Assembly (NCBI GenBank): GCA_020355945.1
Contig: CP070627.1
Location: 8,599,907-8,615,805, forward strand
From: Candidatus Aminicenantota bacterium
Lineage (GTDB): Bacteria; Acidobacteriota; Aminicenantia; UBA2199
DNA length: 15,899 nt
Direction: 5' to 3'
The position numbers were made by a program, and so were the translations under genes. Below are positions 3,076 through 13,565 of the stretch, one piece after another (the stretch's first letter is position 1; each line of letters opens with the position of its first letter). A model generated the notes under the pieces. That model did no database searches and was not told where the DNA came from. It saw only the letters and a list, made by a program, of their open reading frames with translations.

Positions 3076-4281
3076 ATGACGAGTTATAGTTCCCAGCAGT
3101 TAATGGAAATGGAGCATACCTATGGCGCTCATAACTACCATCCATTGGAAGTCGTGATATCCAAAGCAGAAGGTATCTGGGTTGAAGACCCGGAAGGAAA
3201 ACGTTATATTGATATGTTATCCGCTTATTCCGCGGTGAACCAGGGTCATAGGCATCCGGCCATTATCAAAGCCTTGAAAGACCAGGCTGATATGTTGACC
3301 CTGACCTCGCGCGCATTTTTTAATGATAAATGGCCTGTATTCGCGAAAAAGCTTTGCCAGGTGACAGGAAAAGACATGGTCCTCCCGATGAACACCGGCG
3401 CAGAGGCAGTAGAGACCGCTATAAAAGCCATACGAAAATGGGGTTACCAGGTAAAAGGCATAGAACCGGGAAAAGCTGAGATCATTGTCTTTGAAAACAA
3501 CTTCCACGGCCGCACCACCACTATTGTGTCTTTTTCCACAGACCCCATTGCCCATGACCACTATGGACCTTACACACCGGGATTTCAAATCCTCCCTTAC
3601 AACAACCTGGAAGCAGTTAAAAATGCCATTAATAAAAATACAGCGGGAATCCTGGTGGAACCCATCCAGGGCGAAGCCGGTGTGATTGTCCCGGACGATG
3701 GTTATGTGAAAGGGCTGCGAGAGATCGCTGACCAACATAATATTTTACTGGCCGTGGATGAAATTCAAACCGGTTTTTGCCGAACCGGTAAACTGTTCTG
3801 TTTTATGCACGATGGGATTGAACCGGATATCATTATCATGGGTAAAGCCCTGGGTGGTGGTGTGTTTCCTGTAAGCGCTGTCGCCGCTAACAAAGATATC
3901 CTGGGTGTATTTGAACCGGGCAGCCATGGGTCCACCTTTGGAGGCAATCCCCTGGGATGCGCTGTGGCTGCGGCTGCCATCGATGTGCTGCTGGATGAGA
4001 ACCTGGCCCCTAGATCCGCTGAATTGGGAGCATATTTTATGAACCGACTGAAAAATATGAAGTCAGATATAATCGAATTGATCCGGGGAAAAGGACTTTT
4101 CATCGGGGTAGTTCTCAAAAAATCCGCCGGCAAAGCCAGACAATATACCACAAAACTAAAGGAGAAAGGACTTCTCTGCAAAGAAACCCACGACTGGATC
4201 ATTCGTTTTGCACCTCCACTGGTGATTAAAAAAGAAGAGATCGATTACGCTGTGGAGAAAATAAGAGAAGTCCTCGGTTGA
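3076..4281 (+). CDS. rocD: Ornithine aminotransferase
   Basis: A class III PLP aminotransferase, very likely ornithine--oxo-acid transaminase, which transfers the delta-amino group of ornithine to 2-oxoglutarate to give glutamate semialdehyde (arginine/ornithine and proline metabolism, cytoplasm). The 401-residue length is typical. Landmarks are YSAVNQGHRHP (51-61), PMNTGAEAVETAIK (104-117), which marks the ornithine group within class III, NNFHGRT (141-147), VEPIQGEAG (194-202), LAVDEIQTG (225-233) with Asp228, IIMGKALGGG (253-262) with Lys257 as the PLP lysine, and HGSTFGGNPLG (284-294). An AGAGAGGTG site precedes the ATG. Its stop codon overlaps the next start (TGATG), so the PseG-like protein is translationally coupled. 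Acetylornithine aminotransferase is the main alternative, but the NTGAEAVETA segment favours rocD. Confidence 0.92.
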   Translation: MTSYSSQQLMEMEHTYGAHNYHPLEVVISKAEGIWVEDPEGKRYIDMLSAYSAVNQGHRHPAIIKALKDQADMLTLTSRAFFNDKWPVFAKKLCQVTGKDMVLPMNTGAEAVETAIKAIRKWGYQVKGIEPGKAEIIVFENNFHGRTTTIVSFSTDPIAHDHYGPYTPGFQILPYNNLEAVKNAINKNTAGILVEPIQGEAGVIVPDDGYVKGLREIADQHNILLAVDEIQTGFCRTGKLFCFMHDGIEPDIIIMGKALGGGVFPVSAVAANKDILGVFEPGSHGSTFGGNPLGCAVAAAAIDVLLDENLAPRSAELGAYFMNRLKNMKSDIIELIRGKGLFIGVVLKKSAGKARQYTTKLKEKGLLCKETHDWIIRFAPPLVIKKEEIDYAVEKIREVLG

Positions 4282-5258
4282 TGATTATTTTCAGGACAGA
4301 AGCATCCCTAAAAAACGGGTTTGGTCACTTAAACCGGAGTGCTTACCTGGCCTCGTTATTAAAAAGTAAAAGGGAAATCTTGTTCTGTATCGACACTAAA
4401 AACGATAAAACCGTCACCCGGTATTTACAAGAGAAAAAGTGGTCCTATTGTTCGTTAAAGCAGTTGAAACACCTGGAAGACCCTCCTGTTAAAAGTATTA
4501 TTTTTGATCTGAGACACTTTAAAGATGAAGATATCCAATTGATTCACCGGGCCAAAACCAGCAATTGGACCACTATCCAGGTAACAGACCTGGGACTAAG
4601 CCAACAAGAGGTGGACTATACCATTGATGCCTCTATTGATCAACTGTTCCCTTATAGTGAAGATAAAAAAGTGCTGAGTGGACCGGATTATGCAGTCCTT
4701 CACCACAAATTCAGGCATTTCCATCAAGCCAAACGAAAATACAGGAAAAAAATCAAAAAAGTATTTATTTGTTTGGGTGGAGGGGTTGGATATAGAAATC
4801 TGCGGAAAGTGATTGATATGTTGAGCCGTCATCAACCGGATATTAAGATTGCCCCGGGTTTTTATTTAAAAAAGTCCAGCCAAAAAATCTTAAGACGTAT
4901 TTATCCCGGGATACATTTTGTGGGAAAGACGGAAAGCCTGGCCAGGTCTTTTTTTGAAGCGGATGTGGCACTGGTCACCCCTGGTATTGCTGCTTATGAA
5001 GCAGCAGCCACCGGGACACCCGCCCTTTATTTTTATTCTCACAACGAGCAAAAATTCACTGCCGCATCCTTTGAAAAAAAAGGCGTGGGTTTGGAAATTT
5101 CAAATATTAACGATGTATCACCCGTCAATGTGATAGAAAAAATGAAACAACTTACCCTGGAAAAACGAATGAACATGGGCAGCAAAGGGAAACAACTGGT
5201 GGATGCCAAAGGTGTGTACCGAATGATTGATTTTTTTGAAGGTCACAAAATTATCTAA
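4281..5258 (+). CDS. PseG-like UDP-sugar hydrolase / GT28-fold sugar-nucleotide protein
   Basis: The 325-residue product has the two-domain GT-B fold signature of PseG, the UDP-2,4-diacetamido-2,4,6-trideoxy-altropyranose hydrolase of pseudaminic acid synthesis, and of related spore-coat or flagellin sugar proteins. Visible motifs are GFGHLNRS (13-20), the GxGHxxR loop with its catalytic-type His16; FDLRHF (75-80); GPDYAVLHHKFR (134-145), equivalent to the YALLRPEF region; CLGGG (164-168), opening the C-terminal domain; and TPGIAAYEAAATGTPAL (233-249), the nucleotide-sugar binding Glu region, followed by NEQ (255-257). It is about 50 residues longer than the Campylobacter enzyme. No other pseudaminic acid gene is present, so the substrate is unknown. 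The ATG at 4281 shares a base with the rocD stop; an in-frame TTG three bases earlier is less likely. Confidence 0.75.
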   Translation: MIIFRTEASLKNGFGHLNRSAYLASLLKSKREILFCIDTKNDKTVTRYLQEKKWSYCSLKQLKHLEDPPVKSIIFDLRHFKDEDIQLIHRAKTSNWTTIQVTDLGLSQQEVDYTIDASIDQLFPYSEDKKVLSGPDYAVLHHKFRHFHQAKRKYRKKIKKVFICLGGGVGYRNLRKVIDMLSRHQPDIKIAPGFYLKKSSQKILRRIYPGIHFVGKTESLARSFFEADVALVTPGIAAYEAAATGTPALYFYSHNEQKFTAASFEKKGVGLEISNINDVSPVNVIEKMKQLTLEKRMNMGSKGKQLVDAKGVYRMIDFFEGHKII

Positions 5259-5749: not shown

Positions 5750-6001
5750 CGGAAAGTTCCCGCAAGTTGGCGGAAAGGTTCCGCTAGTTAGCGGGAAGGT
5801 TCCGCTAGTTAGCGGGAAGGTTCCGCTAGTTAGCGGGAAGGTTCCGCTAGTTTGCGGAAAGGTTCCGCTAGTTTGCGGGAAGGTTCCGCTAGCTTGCGGG
5901 AAGGTTCCGCTAGTTTGCGGGAAGGTTCCGCAAGTTTGCGGAAAGGTCCCGCTAGCTTGCGGGAAAGTTCCGCCAGTTTGCGGAAAGGTCCCGGCAGTTG
6001 G
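5750..6001. repeat. Tandem array of twelve 21-bp palindromic units
   Basis: Twelve direct 21-bp units fill this segment without spacers. The typical unit is CGGGAAGGTTCCGC followed by TAGTTAG. The central units are nearly identical and the two end units are the most divergent (for example CAAGTTGG first, CGGCAGTTGG last), as in a growing and decaying satellite. Each junction gives two palindromes: GCGGAA-AGG-TTCCGC (exact at 5770-5784; a G-T pair replaces A-T in GCGGGAA units) and GCTA-GT-TAGC (5783-5792 and others). Because 21 is divisible by three, one frame stays open on each strand, encoding GKVPLVS (plus) or GTFPQTS-like (minus) heptapeptides. Neither has a ribosome binding site or a plausible start, so I treat the array as non-coding. 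Confidence 0.92.
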
Positions 6002-6620: not shown

Positions 6621-8639
6621 ATGAAACAATTTTTTAAATGCTTTAATTTTGAATTTAAAAGAAGCCTGAGGGCAAGAAACATCATGTGGGCTGTTCTTTT
6701 CGCCCTATTGGCATTGTACTTCGTGAACAAGGGCGCAAACTTCTTCAACAACATCATCAACACTAAAGAAAATTTTAAGCAAATCGAAAAAAAGAAAATG
6801 GAAAAATGCCAAAACTACAAACAAATGGGGGAAGGTGGATTTCGAGTTATATATATTCCCCCCCCAGTGATGATTTTTTTCCATAATTCCGGTAGATTTT
6901 CAGCAATAAATGCTGTCATTGATATCGGAGAACGTCTGTACATGGATACTTCTGTTAAAGGAAAAGACATGTTTACGGGAAAGCAGGGAAAGTATCGGGA
7001 TTTTGCCGGGGTATTTTTTTTATTCGGCATTCTTATGGTTCTATTTTTTGGGTTTGAATCTTTCCAGTCCGTCGATTACTTAAAACACCTAACCGCGGAG
7101 ATTGGGTTTAACCGGGTATTTTTCCCGGTGCTGTTTGCCCGTTTTGCCGTCATAGGAGTTTTCTTTATCCTGGTTATGGGCCTGGGTATCCTGGTGGTAT
7201 TTATAAAAGGCATTGCCCTATCCGGCAGCGATTATCTTTGCCTGGCCGCTTTCCTGGCCCTGTGGCTGCTGCTGACCCTGGTTTTATTGGCGGCAGGCCT
7301 CATGGTTTCCAGGATAAAAGATCAAAAATTCGCTGTTGGTATAATTTTCCTGGTCTGGATTTGCCTGGTATTTATACTGCCCATGGCAACGGACCAGGCC
7401 GCGGAAGATAAGGCAAAATCATTACCCTCCAATTTCCAACTGGAACTGGATAAATGGAATGAATTGATGGGTTTTGAAGAACGTGCAAAGAAGGAACTTG
7501 ATAAATACTCTGATGAGAATGAAAAAAATAAAGAGAAATTAAATCTTGTAGAAGGTTTCTTTAAAAGAGAATTAATGAAAATACTGGCTATTGAAAAGGA
7601 ATTGGAAAAAAGTATAAGGAAGATTATCGCATTCTATCAAAAAAGTTCCGTTATCTTTCCCACCACATTTTATGAATCCGTCTCCCATGAAATGAGCGGC
7701 ATGGGTTATGGAAACAGCGCCGGGTTTTTTTTGTACCTGGTTAATCTAAAATACAAATTTTGCGTATTTATCAAGGAAAAGAGATTCTATTCCGATGATG
7801 ACAGGGTAGAGCCTTTTATCAAGGACGGGGAGGAGAATGTTTATTACGCTTCCGCCCAAATCCCGGGTAATTACCCCCTGGGAATGATCGTGTTGGTTGT
7901 TTATGCTGCTGCAATGATTACAGGCGCCTATTTCCTGTTCAGGTTTGCCGTATTAAACATGAGAACAGCAGACACCAGGGCAATAAAAATTAAGGGAAAA
8001 AAGCTCGTTTTTAAAAAGGGAGAACACGTGGCTGTTAATGCCAGTGACAGTTCCATCAAAGACCTGTTATACTGCCTGCTTGCCGGTAATTACCAATCAA
8101 TCAGGAAAAAAGGGTTTAAAGAGAGTATCATTGTAAACGGTAACGATATTTTATCCGGGCAAAAACCCGGCCGGTTCACTTACATTTGCGACCCCCGGTC
8201 CCTGCCCCAGGACAGCAGGGTTGATGATTTTTTCACTTTTGCGGCAAGAACATTTAAAATCTCTAAAGAACAAAAAGAGAAAATCATGGAAATCCACGGG
8301 TTAACAGGATTGAACAAGAAATTAATCAGCCAGGTTGAAGACCATGAAAGGGCAGATATGACATTGGCGCTGACCGGGATGATCAGGGATAAAAAAGGTA
8401 AAATTTACCTGTTTTATAATACCGCCAAAGGATTGACAGGTAAGTTTTCCGGGAGATTTAAAGACTTTATCATTGAACTAAAAAAAGACAATACACTGGT
8501 CATTTATCTTTCCACCAATTTAGAGGTAAAATACACACCAACCAGTGGGCGGAGCTTATTTCGCTTTGATTTGTGGGACACGTGGGTGGATGATGCTAGT
8601 GAATTTAATAAAAACTTTGAAAAGGAGGAAAAACAATGA
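6621..8639 (+). CDS. ABC-2 type permease fused to a degenerate ABC ATPase domain
   Basis: 672 residues. The first 445 look like an ABC-2 exporter permease: membrane segments at about 21-36, 129-148, 166-195, 205-230, 238-256 and 420-442, with extracytoplasmic domains at about 37-128 and a helical one at 257-419. The last 220 residues follow the order of an ABC nucleotide-binding domain but with its key residues replaced. The P-loop position reads ASDSSIKDLLYCLLAG (474-489; Lys480 kept, glycines lost), then VNGNDI (505-510), a Q-loop region YICDPRSLPQ (521-530), QVEDHERADM (571-580) where LSGGQ should be, IYLFYNTAKGLTG (595-607) where LLLDEPTAGLDP should be (Asp-Glu to Tyr-Asn), and YLSTN (629-633), with Asn in place of the switch His. 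It therefore probably cannot hydrolyse ATP. Start 6621 is chosen because GGAGG lies six bases upstream; ATG 6615 would have none. It overlaps the next gene (ATGA). Confidence 0.8.
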   Translation: MKQFFKCFNFEFKRSLRARNIMWAVLFALLALYFVNKGANFFNNIINTKENFKQIEKKKMEKCQNYKQMGEGGFRVIYIPPPVMIFFHNSGRFSAINAVIDIGERLYMDTSVKGKDMFTGKQGKYRDFAGVFFLFGILMVLFFGFESFQSVDYLKHLTAEIGFNRVFFPVLFARFAVIGVFFILVMGLGILVVFIKGIALSGSDYLCLAAFLALWLLLTLVLLAAGLMVSRIKDQKFAVGIIFLVWICLVFILPMATDQAAEDKAKSLPSNFQLELDKWNELMGFEERAKKELDKYSDENEKNKEKLNLVEGFFKRELMKILAIEKELEKSIRKIIAFYQKSSVIFPTTFYESVSHEMSGMGYGNSAGFFLYLVNLKYKFCVFIKEKRFYSDDDRVEPFIKDGEENVYYASAQIPGNYPLGMIVLVVYAAAMITGAYFLFRFAVLNMRTADTRAIKIKGKKLVFKKGEHVAVNASDSSIKDLLYCLLAGNYQSIRKKGFKESIIVNGNDILSGQKPGRFTYICDPRSLPQDSRVDDFFTFAARTFKISKEQKEKIMEIHGLTGLNKKLISQVEDHERADMTLALTGMIRDKKGKIYLFYNTAKGLTGKFSGRFKDFIIELKKDNTLVIYLSTNLEVKYTPTSGRSLFRFDLWDTWVDDASEFNKNFEKEEKQ

Positions 8640-9289
8640 ATGATACAAAGAACGTTTCAATCTTAAAAATTTTTATGGTCATAACCGCGGTAATGCTGTT
8701 TAGTATCAATTCATTCTCATTGTGGTATGCAAATGGGTCGGGCGGTGCTTATGAAGGCGGCGGCGACAATGAAACCACATCCATAGATCAATTTATCGTG
8801 GAGGGCGCGGGTTATTTCCTTGATTCCTATGCTTATACCCTGCGGTTTATGAGGGAAGTGGAATTGTCAGCCAACCGGGAATTGAATTACCCGGAGTTGA
8901 GACAACTGCTTAATTCGGCATTGTTCAATATGGAACAGGCCAGGTCTACCTATATGCTCTTAAAAGAAACCGCTGATAATACCCCTTACAACCCGGTGGT
9001 GATCGAAGCATTAAAAAATTTCAACTATGACCTGTTCCGGGAATCCAACGGGTTAAACCATGAAATTTTCACTGACGTTAAAAGCTATTTGATCAAAGGC
9101 CAGGTCAGGGAAATTTACGGGAAACTCCTGTCAGATATGGAAAACATGATTAATTTGCTGCAGACGGTTAAGAAAAAAATCGATAAAAACCTGTTTCCAC
9201 CGGTCAATACCGTAAGGCAATTAAATCAAACCTATTCCGTTTCACTCCTCTTCGGTCAATACACGTCCGGTGTTTTTGATTCCCTTTAG
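8636..9289 (+). CDS. Exported alpha-helical protein coupled to the pseudo-ATPase permease
   Basis: I do not recognise the family. The 217-residue product has a short basic start and a hydrophobic segment (about 9-28), then SLWYANGSGG, consistent with a signal peptide cleaved near residues 28-33. The mature part is a Gly-rich linker (GSGGAYEGGGDN) followed by amphipathic helices (about 48-200), including ELNYPELRQLLNSALFNMEQA and KLLSDMENMINLLQTVKKK segments, with no cysteine and no catalytic motif. The ATG lies inside the stop codon of the permease gene (ATGA) and carries its own AGGAGG seven bases upstream, so the two proteins are almost certainly made together. The mature domain is likely to work in the periplasm, perhaps binding the permease's large extracytoplasmic domains; that role is inferred from context only. 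Confidence 0.75.
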   Translation: MNDTKNVSILKIFMVITAVMLFSINSFSLWYANGSGGAYEGGGDNETTSIDQFIVEGAGYFLDSYAYTLRFMREVELSANRELNYPELRQLLNSALFNMEQARSTYMLLKETADNTPYNPVVIEALKNFNYDLFRESNGLNHEIFTDVKSYLIKGQVREIYGKLLSDMENMINLLQTVKKKIDKNLFPPVNTVRQLNQTYSVSLLFGQYTSGVFDSL

Positions 9290-9457: not shown

Positions 9458-9898
9458 ATGGCAAAGACAAAAAAAGAAAATAACCTGGAAGCTGCAAAAG
9501 CCTTTGGCCAACGACTTCGAGCTGTTCGTAAACATTTAAAACTGAGACAAGAAGATTTTGTCAAGGGTGTAAAAATCTCCACGACCCATTTATCAGACAT
9601 TGAAAAAGGCAAAACCAAACCCTGCCATGATTTTTTTTATAATATCGTCAAAAGTTACAATGTGAATCTTTACTATCTATTGTTTGGAGAAGGAGATATG
9701 TTTGTGGGCAGCCTGGATGAGATAGTGACCGATGGTAAGAGAATAAAGACGGGAAATAAGAATATCGATGAATTTTTGTATCATTTTTTCAATTCCCGTA
9801 TGGTACAAAGTTATGTACTGTTTCATTTCTGGAAGTTATATGAAGATGAGCAATTAGCCATGAAAAAGTACCGTGGGAGTTCGGAAGATGAGGAATAA
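9458..9898 (+). CDS. XRE-family helix-turn-helix regulator
   Basis: A 146-residue cytoplasmic DNA-binding protein. Residues about 17-76 form a Cro/CI-type five-helix domain: FGQRLRAVRKHLKLRQEDFVKG, then the recognition-helix region ISTTHLSDIEKGKTKP, then FFYNIVKSYNVNLYYLLFGEGD. The C-terminal 65 residues hold an amphipathic helical region (IDEFLYHFFNSRMVQSYVLFHFWKLYEDEQLAMKKY) that may mediate dimerisation or ligand contact, and an acidic tail. There is no integrase, toxin or phage gene beside it, so its target is unknown; the coupled permease pair upstream (168 bases) and the convergent SPASM gene are the nearest candidates. AGGA seven bases before the ATG supports this start. Confidence 0.9.
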   Translation: MAKTKKENNLEAAKAFGQRLRAVRKHLKLRQEDFVKGVKISTTHLSDIEKGKTKPCHDFFYNIVKSYNVNLYYLLFGEGDMFVGSLDEIVTDGKRIKTGNKNIDEFLYHFFNSRMVQSYVLFHFWKLYEDEQLAMKKYRGSSEDEE

Positions 9899-10007: not shown

Positions 10008-10736
10008 TCACTCAATAGGCGACCAATTTCCAGTATAGGGATCATACTGGCAATAGGGGTTGGTGGAGTATATTTCTCCACCTTCCCGCATCGCGATTTC
10101 CCTGCAATCAAAACATACATATCTCAATTCGCAATCTTTGCATTTATAAACTTTATCTTTTGTTATTTTCCAATACTCTCTGGCATTATCTACGATTATG
10201 TTCAATTGGTCTGTGAAAATATGGCCCAGTATAATCTGGCTGTGAAGACATAACCTTGCTGTGCCGTCTTTCAACACGGCAATTTTTTTACCCCAGCAGC
10301 TATTATAATATCGATTGAAATGATAAAAGGCTTCATCGACTTTTCTAAAATTGCCGTCGCATATAACCAAATCCAGGCAGCGGTTAAAATTCTTCTCCTC
10401 AGGGGTGGCTGCGGATATCGATATATCATAGTCAGAAAATTTTTGGCGAATCGTCTTAGCATCAATTTCTTCTTCGATTTGAACGTGAAAGTAGTCGTCT
10501 TTTATTTCATCAAAGGTGATATAGGGAATCCAATCACCAGGATGGACATTGAAGCATAACTCTTCTTCTTCGAGCATTCGGATGAAATCCGGGATTTCAC
10601 AGTATTTTCCTTCGAGGAATTTTTCTACAAACTCGTTACCCATCTGGTAAATGTGACCTTTTAAAAAATCAACAATCGCAGTATTTATAGGACCTTTCTC
10701 CAGGAGGACAAATTGATGAAATTTTTTGACTTTCAT
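10008..10736 (-). CDS. SPASM-domain peptide-maturase-like protein (grasp-with-spasm type), internally short
   Basis: 242 residues. The C-terminal part is a SPASM domain, the auxiliary iron-sulfur module of peptide-modifying radical SAM enzymes: Cys147, Cys163 (fifteen residues apart), then CKDCELRYVCFDC (199-211) in the CX2CX5CX2C pattern, and Cys229 in PYCQYDPYTGNW. The YWKITKD segment and the YDPYTG-W ending resemble the maturase of grasp-with-spasm peptide systems. Residues 1-80 resemble that family's N-terminal domain. No CX3CX2C for a radical SAM cluster is present, and the spacing between N-terminal and SPASM parts is only about 65 residues, where family members as I remember them have roughly 100 more. 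No ATP-grasp gene or obvious precursor peptide is nearby. The start is four bases after the upstream propeller stop, on the same strand, so both belonged to one operon. It may be decaying. Confidence 0.75.
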   Translation of the reverse strand: MKVKKFHQFVLLEKGPINTAIVDFLKGHIYQMGNEFVEKFLEGKYCEIPDFIRMLEEEELCFNVHPGDWIPYITFDEIKDDYFHVQIEEEIDAKTIRQKFSDYDISISAATPEEKNFNRCLDLVICDGNFRKVDEAFYHFNRYYNSCWGKKIAVLKDGTARLCLHSQIILGHIFTDQLNIIVDNAREYWKITKDKVYKCKDCELRYVCFDCREIAMREGGEIYSTNPYCQYDPYTGNWSPIE

Positions 10737-12292: not shown

Positions 12293-12338
12293 ATCTATCT
12301 TGATATTAAAATGATTCATTTTAAAAAGGTGGTCTATG

Positions 12339-13565
12339 ATGAAACATGTTAAATTGATTCTTTGCTTCGTTGTGATTTTGGGGGCAGGTATTTTTTCCCT
12401 GGCAGGGGAGAAAACAAAACTGAGTCCCAAAGAAGAACTGGGTAAGAAATTGTTTTTTGACACCAATCTTTCCGAACCGGTGGGCCAATCGTGTGCGGTT
12501 TGCCACTTACCAAAAGCCGGGTGGTCAGGTCCTGATTCAAAGATAAACAACGGAGGTTCGGTTTACCCGGGAGCGCTTGAGTTGAGGTTTGGGAACCGCA
12601 AACCACCTTCTGCCGCTTATGCCGGGATGAACCCCAAACTCCATCGAGACGAAGAGGGAACTTTTCTAGGTGGTATGTTCTGGGACGGCCGGGCTGCCGG
12701 ATGGGACTTGAATGATCCCCTGGCCGAACAAGCGATGGGACCTTTCCTGAACCCGTTAGAACAGAATATCCCGGACAAAAAAACCATTATAAAAAAAGTC
12801 ATGGCCTCAGATTATGTGGACCTGTTCAAAAAAGTATGGGGACCTGATTCCCTGTCGTTGATAGATGCGGATAGAACCTACGAGCGTATTGCCCGGTCCA
12901 TTGCCGCCTATGAACGCTCTACCGAAGTCAATCCCTTTAGCTCTAAGTTCGACGACTTCTGGCGAAAAGCCGGTTCTTCCGGTTTAAAGGTGGAATCCAT
13001 TAATGCTTCCAATATGGATCGTTTTAAAGGAATGGGCCTGGATGATGAAGAACTGGAAGGACTGATGCTTTTTAATACCAAAGGAAAATGTGCGGAGTGC
13101 CATGTGCTAACATCGGGAAATGGAATGCCCCCTTTGTTTACCGATTTCACCTATGATAATTTGGGTGTTCCTAAGAACCCTAAAAACCCCTTCTATACCA
13201 TGGACAAAAAATGGAACCCGGAAGGAAAAAAATGGGTGGATCAAGGATTAGGAGGATTCCTGGAAAAAGTAGATAAATATAAAAAATATGCGGCGGAAAA
13301 TTATGGCAAACACAAAGTCCCCACACTCCGCAATATAGACAGCAGGCCTGGACAAGGTTTTGTTAAAGCTTATATGCACAATGGATTCTTCAAAACCCTT
13401 AAAGATGTGGTGAATTTTTATAACACCAGGGATAAGGCGGGCGCCCAATGGCCGCCCCCTGAAATCACAGCCAATGTGAACAAAGAGGAACTGGGAAACC
13501 TGGGTTTAACCCCCAAAGAAGAAGACGCTGTTGTTACCTTCATGAAAACCCTTTCCGATAGATAA
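12339..13565 (+). CDS. Exported di-heme cytochrome c peroxidase / MauG-family protein
   Basis: The precursor starts KHVKLILCFVVILGAGIFSLAG, a signal peptide, so the 408-residue protein is periplasmic. Two c-type haem sites are visible: CAVCH (52-56) and CAECH (251-255). FWDGRAAGWDLNDPLAEQAMGPFLNP (in order from about 114) is the linker region typical of CcpA/MauG proteins, and KVPTLRNID and YMHNGFFKTLKDVVNFYNTRD near the end are also family hallmarks. Members reduce hydrogen peroxide with electrons from small cytochromes or quinols (CcpA), or oxidise protein substrates (MauG). Which applies cannot be read from sequence, and no methylamine dehydrogenase genes are present. AGGTGG is six bases before ATG 12339 and three before ATG 12336, so I prefer the former. 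It has its own promoter and stands alone. Confidence 0.9.
   Translation: MKHVKLILCFVVILGAGIFSLAGEKTKLSPKEELGKKLFFDTNLSEPVGQSCAVCHLPKAGWSGPDSKINNGGSVYPGALELRFGNRKPPSAAYAGMNPKLHRDEEGTFLGGMFWDGRAAGWDLNDPLAEQAMGPFLNPLEQNIPDKKTIIKKVMASDYVDLFKKVWGPDSLSLIDADRTYERIARSIAAYERSTEVNPFSSKFDDFWRKAGSSGLKVESINASNMDRFKGMGLDDEELEGLMLFNTKGKCAECHVLTSGNGMPPLFTDFTYDNLGVPKNPKNPFYTMDKKWNPEGKKWVDQGLGGFLEKVDKYKKYAAENYGKHKVPTLRNIDSRPGQGFVKAYMHNGFFKTLKDVVNFYNTRDKAGAQWPPPEITANVNKEELGNLGLTPKEEDAVVTFMKTLSDR

What the first reader, a model, noticed from the sequence alone, without database searches (positions are those of the whole stretch)
6621..9289. ABC-2 permease carrying a catalytically dead ABC ATPase, coupled to an exported helical protein
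Seen: a six-helix ABC-2-like membrane part, then about 200 residues that keep the order of ABC ATPase motifs (VNGNDI, a Q-loop-like YICDPRSLPQ, TAKGLTG after the Walker B strand, a strand-plus-STN at the H-loop) while losing P-loop glycines, LSGGQ, the Walker B Asp-Glu and the switch His. The next gene overlaps its stop and encodes a signal-peptide protein. Known: ABC-2 exporters normally use a separate, active ATPase chain. Inferred: the fused pseudo-domain could pair with an ATPase encoded elsewhere, or the protein could be a signalling or mechanical complex with no transport cycle. The two large extracytoplasmic domains and the coupled periplasmic protein point to work on the outer face.
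Basis: partly seen in the sequence, partly recalled or inferred. Interest (0 to 1): 0.7.

Follow-up and report, generated by a model that had tools for sequence, protein, structure and literature searches.

The report
Conserved dead ABC transporter with partner
A family of bacterial membrane proteins built like ATP-driven transporters has lost the parts needed to use ATP, yet is kept and copied together with an exported partner protein, so it probably does a job other than ATP-driven transport.

Summary
The window gene (6621-8639) is a NosY-like ABC-2 permease fused to an ABC-ATPase-fold domain without P-loop glycines, signature, catalytic Glu or switch His. It is not one decayed copy. I aligned 57 fused dead domains (the window's included) and 20 separate-gene ones; 0 of 77 have a complete P-loop. 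A sister system in other genomes of the same class (Candidatus Aminicenantes relatives) has intact ATPases (18 of 18 aligned). The dead domain is under purifying selection (omega 0.14-0.20 in four close pairs). The dead-type permeases also lack the sister group's coupling-helix motif (0 of 83 against 21 of 23). A gene for an exported four-helix protein lies on the same strand beside 81 of 87 permease ORFs and has no hit in 19 sister loci. One 10.4 Mb genome has up to 27 permease places, often near an XRE regulator. Most likely reading: an ATP-independent complex derived from an ABC-2 transporter, perhaps a sensor or signal relay. Pairing with an ATPase elsewhere is disfavoured. Function is inferred, not shown.

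The parts
6621..8639 (+). Fused ABC-2 permease with dead ABC ATPase domain, 672 aa
6621..7958 (+). NosY-like ABC-2 membrane part (residues 1-446), six helices, two extracytoplasmic regions (about 39-127 and 266-417)
7068..7109 (+). Coupling-helix region SVDYLKHLTAEIGF; the sister group's E[KR]ExG[ST] motif is absent
   Evidence: 21 of 23 sister, 0 of 83 dead-type; coordinates
7959..8636 (+). Dead ABC ATPase domain (residues 447-672)
   Evidence: fold; sequence intermediates; motif table:
8019..8087 (+). Degenerate Walker A stretch GEHVAVNASDSSIKDLLYCLLAG
8328..8441 (+). Degenerate signature helix and Walker B / D-loop stretch
8499..8519 (+). Degenerate switch (H-loop) strand VIYLSTN
8636..9289 (+). 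Partner protein, 217 aa: hydrophobic N-terminus (signal peptide or anchor, not tested) and a four-helix bundle
   Evidence: ORF; AF2 mean pLDDT 88.8; family alignment A3; adjacency
9458..9898 (+). XRE-type helix-turn-helix regulator, 146 aa; accessory, common near family members in large genomes
   Evidence: HTH_19 E 3.6e-12; in G001 16 of 36 listed relatives lie within 3 kb of a permease, about 0.7 expected

Best explanation
This is an ATP-independent membrane complex descended from a NosFY-like ABC-2 transporter. Shown by sequence and predicted fold: a NosY-like membrane part; a conserved ABC ATPase domain without a complete ATP site; a changed coupling helix; a gene-linked helical protein with an export-type N-terminus. 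Inferred: two permease chains dimerise as in ABC-2 transporters; the dead domains act as a dimer clamp and cytoplasmic docking face; the helical protein sits on the extracytoplasmic regions and responds to a ligand or envelope condition; the change passes across the membrane to a cytoplasmic partner. In large genomes that partner may be the neighbouring XRE regulator, held or released as MalK holds MalT. The complex would be a sensor or signal relay rather than a pump.
For: No complete P-loop in 77 dead domains against 18 of 18 sister ATPases. Purifying selection on dead domain and membrane part alike in four close pairs (omega dead/membrane 0.14/0.14, 0.14/0.15, 0.19/0.16, 0.20/0.19). Conservation moved: in 12 split dead domains the P-loop block has entropy 1.09 bits against 0.15 in 18 intact ones, while the last four blocks have 0.21-0.57 against 0.40-0.86. 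Coupling motif 0 of 83. Partner gene at 81 of 87 permease ORFs, no hit in 19 sister loci. XRE enrichment in G001: 16 of 36 listed within 3 kb, about 0.7 expected. Sister and dead-type permeases lie on two sides of a branch with SH-aLRT 100. Precedent for docking: MalK-MalT, passages of PMC10427625.
Against: No interaction, ligand or transcriptional effect is shown. None of 22 split-type permease ORFs has an XRE hit within 3 kb in the stretch fetched, some of which are short, so XRE cannot be essential. Only 24 of 57 fused permeases have a same-strand XRE within 1.5 kb. XRE distances follow the dead domain hardly better than the membrane part (Pearson 0.56 against 0.52). Some closely related pairs show weaker constraint (omega 0.37-0.47 on one or both parts, e.g. 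L190/L192, L189/L190). Part of the ATP-site residues survive in some copies: Walker B Asp column D in 21 of 57 fused, catalytic Glu column E in 5 of 57, signature Ser S in 13 of 57, Walker A Lys column K in 17 of 57, though none has both D and E or both S and G. The partner's best structural matches are generic helical bundles. A pure scaffold would leave the same traces.
Confidence: 0.45

Rival explanations
1. Static scaffold: the complex anchors or assembles the exported helical protein in the envelope; the dead domain only holds the dimer together.
For: Linked partner, loss of ATP site and coupling motif, constraint on fold and C-terminal surface.
Against: Many divergent paralogues and linked regulators in large genomes are more than a scaffold seems to need (inference). 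A six-helix ABC-2 membrane part is an elaborate anchor.
Confidence: 0.25
2. Transport driven by an ion gradient: the ABC-2 membrane part became a secondary transporter, as SbmA did from an ABC exporter-type membrane part.
For: Precedent: SbmA is proton-driven and related to the membrane part of ABC transporters (abstract of PMC13316013). The membrane part is conserved.
Against: SbmA-type proteins work without an ATPase domain, whereas here a dead one is kept under constraint. No ion-relay pattern was tested.
Confidence: 0.12
3. Pump that borrows an active ATPase: the dead domain pairs with, or is displaced by, a shared ATPase from elsewhere.
For: Five carrier genomes each have 39-53 ABC-ATPase matches, the dead gene itself among them. 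Active ATPase genes or pieces lie in the fetched stretch of three loci: L057, L141, L145.
Against: Walker A and signature are both lost, so neither composite site of a heterodimer would be canonical (inference). Coupling motif absent in 83 of 83. Sister-type permeases (E 1e-40) occur in 36 of 142 genomes, none of them among the 26 with the partner gene. The best ATPase matches in the five carrier genomes have E 2e-47 to 8e-43, while sister-type ATPases score 1e-132 or better with the same alignment (a much smaller search space).
Confidence: 0.1
4. Ordinary decay: the window holds a single degenerate transporter on the way to becoming a pseudogene.
For: Motifs are lost and the fold is hard to see from the window's own sequence.
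Against: 16 relatives at 58-68 percent identity over 95-100 percent of the length carry the domain too; 77 dead domains in 24 genomes plus the window; omega 0.14-0.20 in four pairs.
Confidence: 0.03

Closest known systems
NosDFY (NosF ATPase, NosY permease, NosD periplasmic partner)
   Different: NosF is an active ATPase and a separate chain (recalled); NosD is a beta-helix (recalled), here the partner is a helical bundle; here there is no complete ATP site
Sister system of the same class: permease of about 470-500 aa plus ATPase of about 240 aa (L146-L164)
   Same: Close relatives of both chains; the C-terminal stretch of the ATPase (DIFRAKEIADRVGF) resembles the dead form (DIFYASEIADRVGF)
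   Different: Intact Walker A, signature, Walker B and His; coupling motif present in 21 of 23; no partner gene detected
FtsEX-EnvC and other type VII mechanotransmission systems
   Same: ABC complex that acts on an extracytoplasmic partner instead of transporting (abstracts in the listing)
   Different: Uses ATP; FtsX has a different membrane fold (recalled)
SbmA / SLiPT peptide transporters
   Same: Membrane part of ABC origin working without ATP (abstract)
   Different: Exporter-type fold and no ATPase domain; no partner protein known to me (recalled)
Heterodimeric ABC transporters with one degenerate site (CydDC, TM287/288, BmrCD)
   Same: Degenerate ATP-site residues in conserved families (recalled; these chains are among the Foldseek rows)
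   Different: They keep one consensus site (recalled); here no chain has either half complete
MalK-MalT docking
   Same: An ATPase subunit of a transporter holds a transcription factor at the membrane (passages)
   Different: MalK is active (recalled); the XRE link here is genomic only

Membership tests
ABC-2 permease (NosY / PF12679 type) | Six-helix ABC-2 membrane fold | tested here: met
ABC-2 permease (NosY / PF12679 type) | Pfam PF12679 above its gathering score | tested here: inconclusive
   22.5 bits against 27.2, but the protein database's precomputed domains list PF12679 for the window's protein
ABC-2 permease (NosY / PF12679 type) | Coupling-helix motif E[KR]ExG[ST] as in the sister group | tested here: not met
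   0 of 83 dead-type, 21 of 23 sister permeases
ABC ATPase | ABC nucleotide-binding-domain fold | tested here: met
ABC ATPase | Walker A GxxxxGK[ST] | tested here: not met
   0 of 77 dead domains, window included
ABC ATPase | Walker B Asp with catalytic Glu | tested here: not met
   Window Tyr-Asn; Glu column E in 5 of 57 fused and 0 of 20 split; no fused one has both D and E
ABC ATPase | Switch His | tested here: not met
   0 of 57 fused, 0 of 20 split (one split row has a gap there)
Functional ABC transporter | ATP hydrolysis coupled to transport | not testable with these tools
   Needs biochemistry
Type VII mechanotransmission systems (FtsEX, MacB) | Active ATPase | tested here: not met
   No complete ATP site
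Type VII mechanotransmission systems (FtsEX, MacB) | Type VII membrane fold | tested here: inconclusive
   Rows for the membrane part are NosY and other ABC-2 type chains; absence of other families from that list does not exclude them
SLiPT (SbmA-like) | ABC membrane part without an ATPase domain | tested here: not met
   The window model has the domain at 448-657
Known anti-phage defence proteins (PADLOC) | Match of permease or partner to a defence model | tested here: not met
   0 families at E 0.01 for permease and partner; only generic HTH-type models for the XRE protein

The most novel reading that the evidence does not exclude
A family of transmembrane signal receptors was made from an ABC-2 transporter: the ATPase pair became an ATP-free cytoplasmic docking module, the partner protein became the sensor head, and the modules are shuffled and multiplied to some two dozen copies per genome, many with an XRE regulator alongside. 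It would be a receptor system unlike two-component systems or known transporter-based sensors.
Probability: 0.3. Interest if true: 0.88.

Novelty: new variant of a known kind. Interest (0 to 1): 0.68.

Why it matters
ABC ATPases are defined by ATP use. Here is a conserved, multi-copy family that lacks a complete P-loop and the switch His in every copy examined (77 of 77), while an intact sister system lives on in other genomes of the same class. It is a natural experiment on what an ABC fold can do without ATP, it makes testable whether ABC-2 permeases can work as sensors or scaffolds, and it warns against annotating such genes as transporters: some relatives are named ABC-type multi-copper maturation or sugar permease subunits.

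Tried and rejected
Direct profile comparison of the window's own subfamily (17 rows) with intact ATPases was not significant: E 0.15, against one reversed and nine column-shuffled controls at 0.063-0.63. I do not claim homology from the window's sequence alone; intermediates and fold carry it.

Rejected: a decayed single copy. Judged unlikely: a borrowed ATPase.

XRE co-variation with the dead domain looked striking in one pair (L179/L181: permease 82, partner 92, dead domain 54, XRE 38 percent) but the overall correlations do not separate it from the membrane part.

Literature: (nine searches). Searches returned 0 papers; in the listings of the others I saw no paper on this family. Most subscription papers are not held, and the NosDFY structure papers did not come up. 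Of papers I saw listings and abstract starts, plus passages of PMC10427625 and the abstract and outline of PMC13316013.

Limits: the tree is the quick method with SH-aLRT only and a midpoint root. Its 83 dead-type rows include P0020, whose ATPase gene was not seen. The 18 sister ATPases were picked by similarity to an intact-ATPase profile, but no ATPase-like hit without a P-loop turned up in the 19 sister loci. 17 of those 19 loci showed an ATPase in the stretch fetched; L150 and L160 did not. The 12 split domains and 18 intact ones compared for entropy differ in overall divergence. Copy numbers are capped: at most 8 to 50 candidates per genome were scored, by search. GK[ST] tripeptides in 16 fused and 1 split sequence are not P-loops.

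Full report
WHAT IS THERE. The window carries three genes in a row on the + strand: a permease of 672 aa (6621-8639), a 217-aa protein with a hydrophobic N-terminus (8636-9289, overlapping by 4 nt) and an XRE-type regulator (9458-9898). The database record of this protein lies on a contig of 9,131,798 bases. No genome is held for the window. The only relative in the genome-contig scan is a Candidatus Aminicenantes MAG (L001); that the window belongs to this group, and that the class searched below is Aminicenantia, is inferred from that title.

HOMOLOGY. The window subfamily alone does not reach intact ATPases by sequence (E 0.15, within controls; intact-only profile no hit). Intermediates close the gap. 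The intact-only profile hits 19 of 20 split dead domains and 4 of 56 fused ones at E 1e-3. A profile of all 20 split domains hits the window at 7.1e-8, 51 of 56 other fused ones and 18 of 18 intact ATPases. A profile of four split domains hits the window at 4.7e-15 and 18 of 18 intact ATPases. One split dead domain matches PDB ABC ATPases directly (best E 5.9e-6). The five-row alignment A4, which includes the window, gives E 2.4e-18 against five intact ATPases and 4.8e-12 against PDB.

A FAMILY, NOT ONE DECAYED COPY. The protein search gave 24 proteins including the window's own: P0002-P0017 are 58-68 percent identical over 95-100 percent of the query, P0018 and P0019 are partial, P0020 lacks the C-terminal domain, and P0021-P0024 are 27-30 percent identical with the domain. 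One genome, G001 (10.4 Mb), gave 35 match rows, which I group into 27 places, several of them partial or at contig edges (list used). In a sample of 297 genomes of the phylum 13 matched. Four (G001, G035, G084, G289) have the full permease; seven matched only in the C-terminal part, in frames of 215-451 aa, and two only in part of the membrane domain. Of those seven I opened three (L040-L042), and each has an ATPase with a P-loop there.

DISTRIBUTION. The partner protein was found in 5 of those 297 genomes and in 26 of 142 genomes of the class. In the 26, genomes of 2.0-3.1 Mb have one or two match rows and seven genomes of 4.7-10.4 Mb have 5 to 20 (at most 20 candidates scored); but G300, G301 and G305 (4.4-5.0 Mb) have none, so size alone does not decide. 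The large protein database gave 244 relatives, 120 listed; the few organism names there are Aminicenantes, Acidobacteria, Chrysiogenia and Binatia MAGs, so restriction to the class is a finding for the sampled genomes only.

TWO ARCHITECTURES. In the small genomes the usual order is partner, permease of about 446 aa, then a separate dead ATPase gene overlapping or adjoining it; in the seven large genomes most are fused, with split cases at L043 (G001), L142 (G385) and L201 (G384). On a quick tree of 106 membrane parts the 23 sister permeases lie on one side of a branch with SH-aLRT 100 and the 83 dead-type ones on the other. The fused label needs 4 changes, at least 2 forced by well-supported branches.

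LOSS OF THE ATP SITE. Columns, intact / split / fused. Complete Walker A: 18 of 18 / 0 of 20 / 0 of 57. Catalytic Glu: 18 / 0 / 5. Switch His: 18 / 0 / 0. Signature Gly: 18 / 0 / 1. Walker B Asp: 18 / 0 / 21. Signature Ser: 18 / 0 / 13. Walker A Lys column: 18 / 0 / 17, the window among the 17 but without the glycines. The window reads Y-N at Walker B and T at the His column. No fused domain has both Walker B Asp and Glu, or both signature Ser and Gly. I infer that no heterodimer could form a canonical site, because each site needs Walker A of one chain and the signature of the other. The permease changed too: E[KR]ExG[ST] at the coupling helix in 21 of 23 sister and 0 of 83 dead-type permeases; in the latter the aligned columns mostly read Y (63), L (64), K or R (66), F (59).

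SELECTION. Nei-Gojobori omega, membrane part / dead domain, for the four closest pairs, all between G386 and G387: 0.14/0.14, 0.15/0.14, 0.16/0.19, 0.19/0.20. Other pairs have saturated dS or higher values, up to 0.45 for the membrane part and 0.47 for the dead domain. In 12 split dead domains the P-loop block has entropy 1.09 bits against 0.15 in 18 intact ones, while the last four blocks (191-229) have 0.21-0.57 against 0.40-0.86. The domain seems kept for something other than ATP.

REPLACEMENT. Sister permeases at E 1e-40 or better occur in 36 of 142 class genomes and the partner protein in 26; no genome has both, about 6.6 expected if independent, though shared ancestry can explain this. 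Five carrier genomes have 39-53 ABC-ATPase matches each, best E 2e-47 to 8e-43 in open frames of 306 aa; sister-type ATPases score 1e-132 or better with the same alignment in a smaller search. An active ATPase gene or piece lies in the fetched stretch at L057, L141 and L145, and at no other dead-type locus at E 1e-10.

REGULATOR. In G001, 16 of 36 listed relatives of the window's XRE lie within 3 kb of a permease, about 0.7 expected, and 13 of 27 permease places have one (list, which reports 48 matches, 12 of them not listed). Of 57 fused permeases 24 have one on the same strand within 1.5 kb. None of 22 split-type permease ORFs has one within 3 kb in the stretch fetched. XRE is thus an accessory of the expanded genomes.

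MOSAIC. Some close pairs have unlike parts: L189/L192 membrane part 85 percent with dS 0.19, dead domain 40 percent with dS 2.55; L056/L057 membrane part 39, dead domain 68 percent. Unequal dS points to recombination or gene conversion between paralogues, so the dead domain may be an exchangeable module.

MECHANISM. Shown by sequence and prediction: fold, loss of catalytic motifs, constraint, partner linkage. Inferred: the dimer, the partner as sensing head, docking of a cytoplasmic protein on the dead domain. Precedents: MalK anchors MalT at the membrane (passages of PMC10427625); FtsEX acts as a signal transmitter on periplasmic partners (abstracts); SbmA is an ABC-type membrane part that runs on the proton gradient (abstract of PMC13316013). 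My probabilities: no ATP use by this protein about 0.9; sensor or relay 0.45; scaffold 0.25; ion-driven transport 0.12; borrowed ATPase 0.1.

NOVELTY. No described family of this composition turned up in Pfam, NCBIfam, PADLOC or PHROGs or in the paper searches. I file it as a new variant of a known kind: an ABC-2 pseudo-transporter.

Noticed in passing
window 5751-5993: A 21-base tandem repeat, 11.5 copies, with ORFs through it on both strands, upstream of the permease.
   Followed up: no
window 10008-10736 (-): A short SPASM-type protein resembling the grasp-with-spasm peptide maturase: 80.3 bits against a cut-off of 175, only model positions 192-333 of 342. It may be a remnant.
   Followed up: partly
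L189/L190/L192, L179/L181, L056/L057: Membrane part and dead domain of paralogues have unlike divergence and unequal dS: module swapping or gene conversion.
   Followed up: partly
L046 3724-5094; L048 5247-6626; L051 2493-3680; L184 3845-6489: Two or three copies of the partner gene in a row beside a permease.
   Followed up: no
L001 13347-13979 (-): Protein with a dense cysteine-rich C-terminus near the permease genes, possibly a secreted or modified peptide.
   Followed up: no
window 12336-13565 (+): Di-haem enzyme resembling MbnH and MauG, below the curated cut-off (78.8 against 362.85 bits).
   Followed up: no
window 4278-5258 (+): PseG-like protein, 77.9 bits against a cut-off of 153.55, overlapping the end of an ornithine aminotransferase gene.
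   Followed up: no
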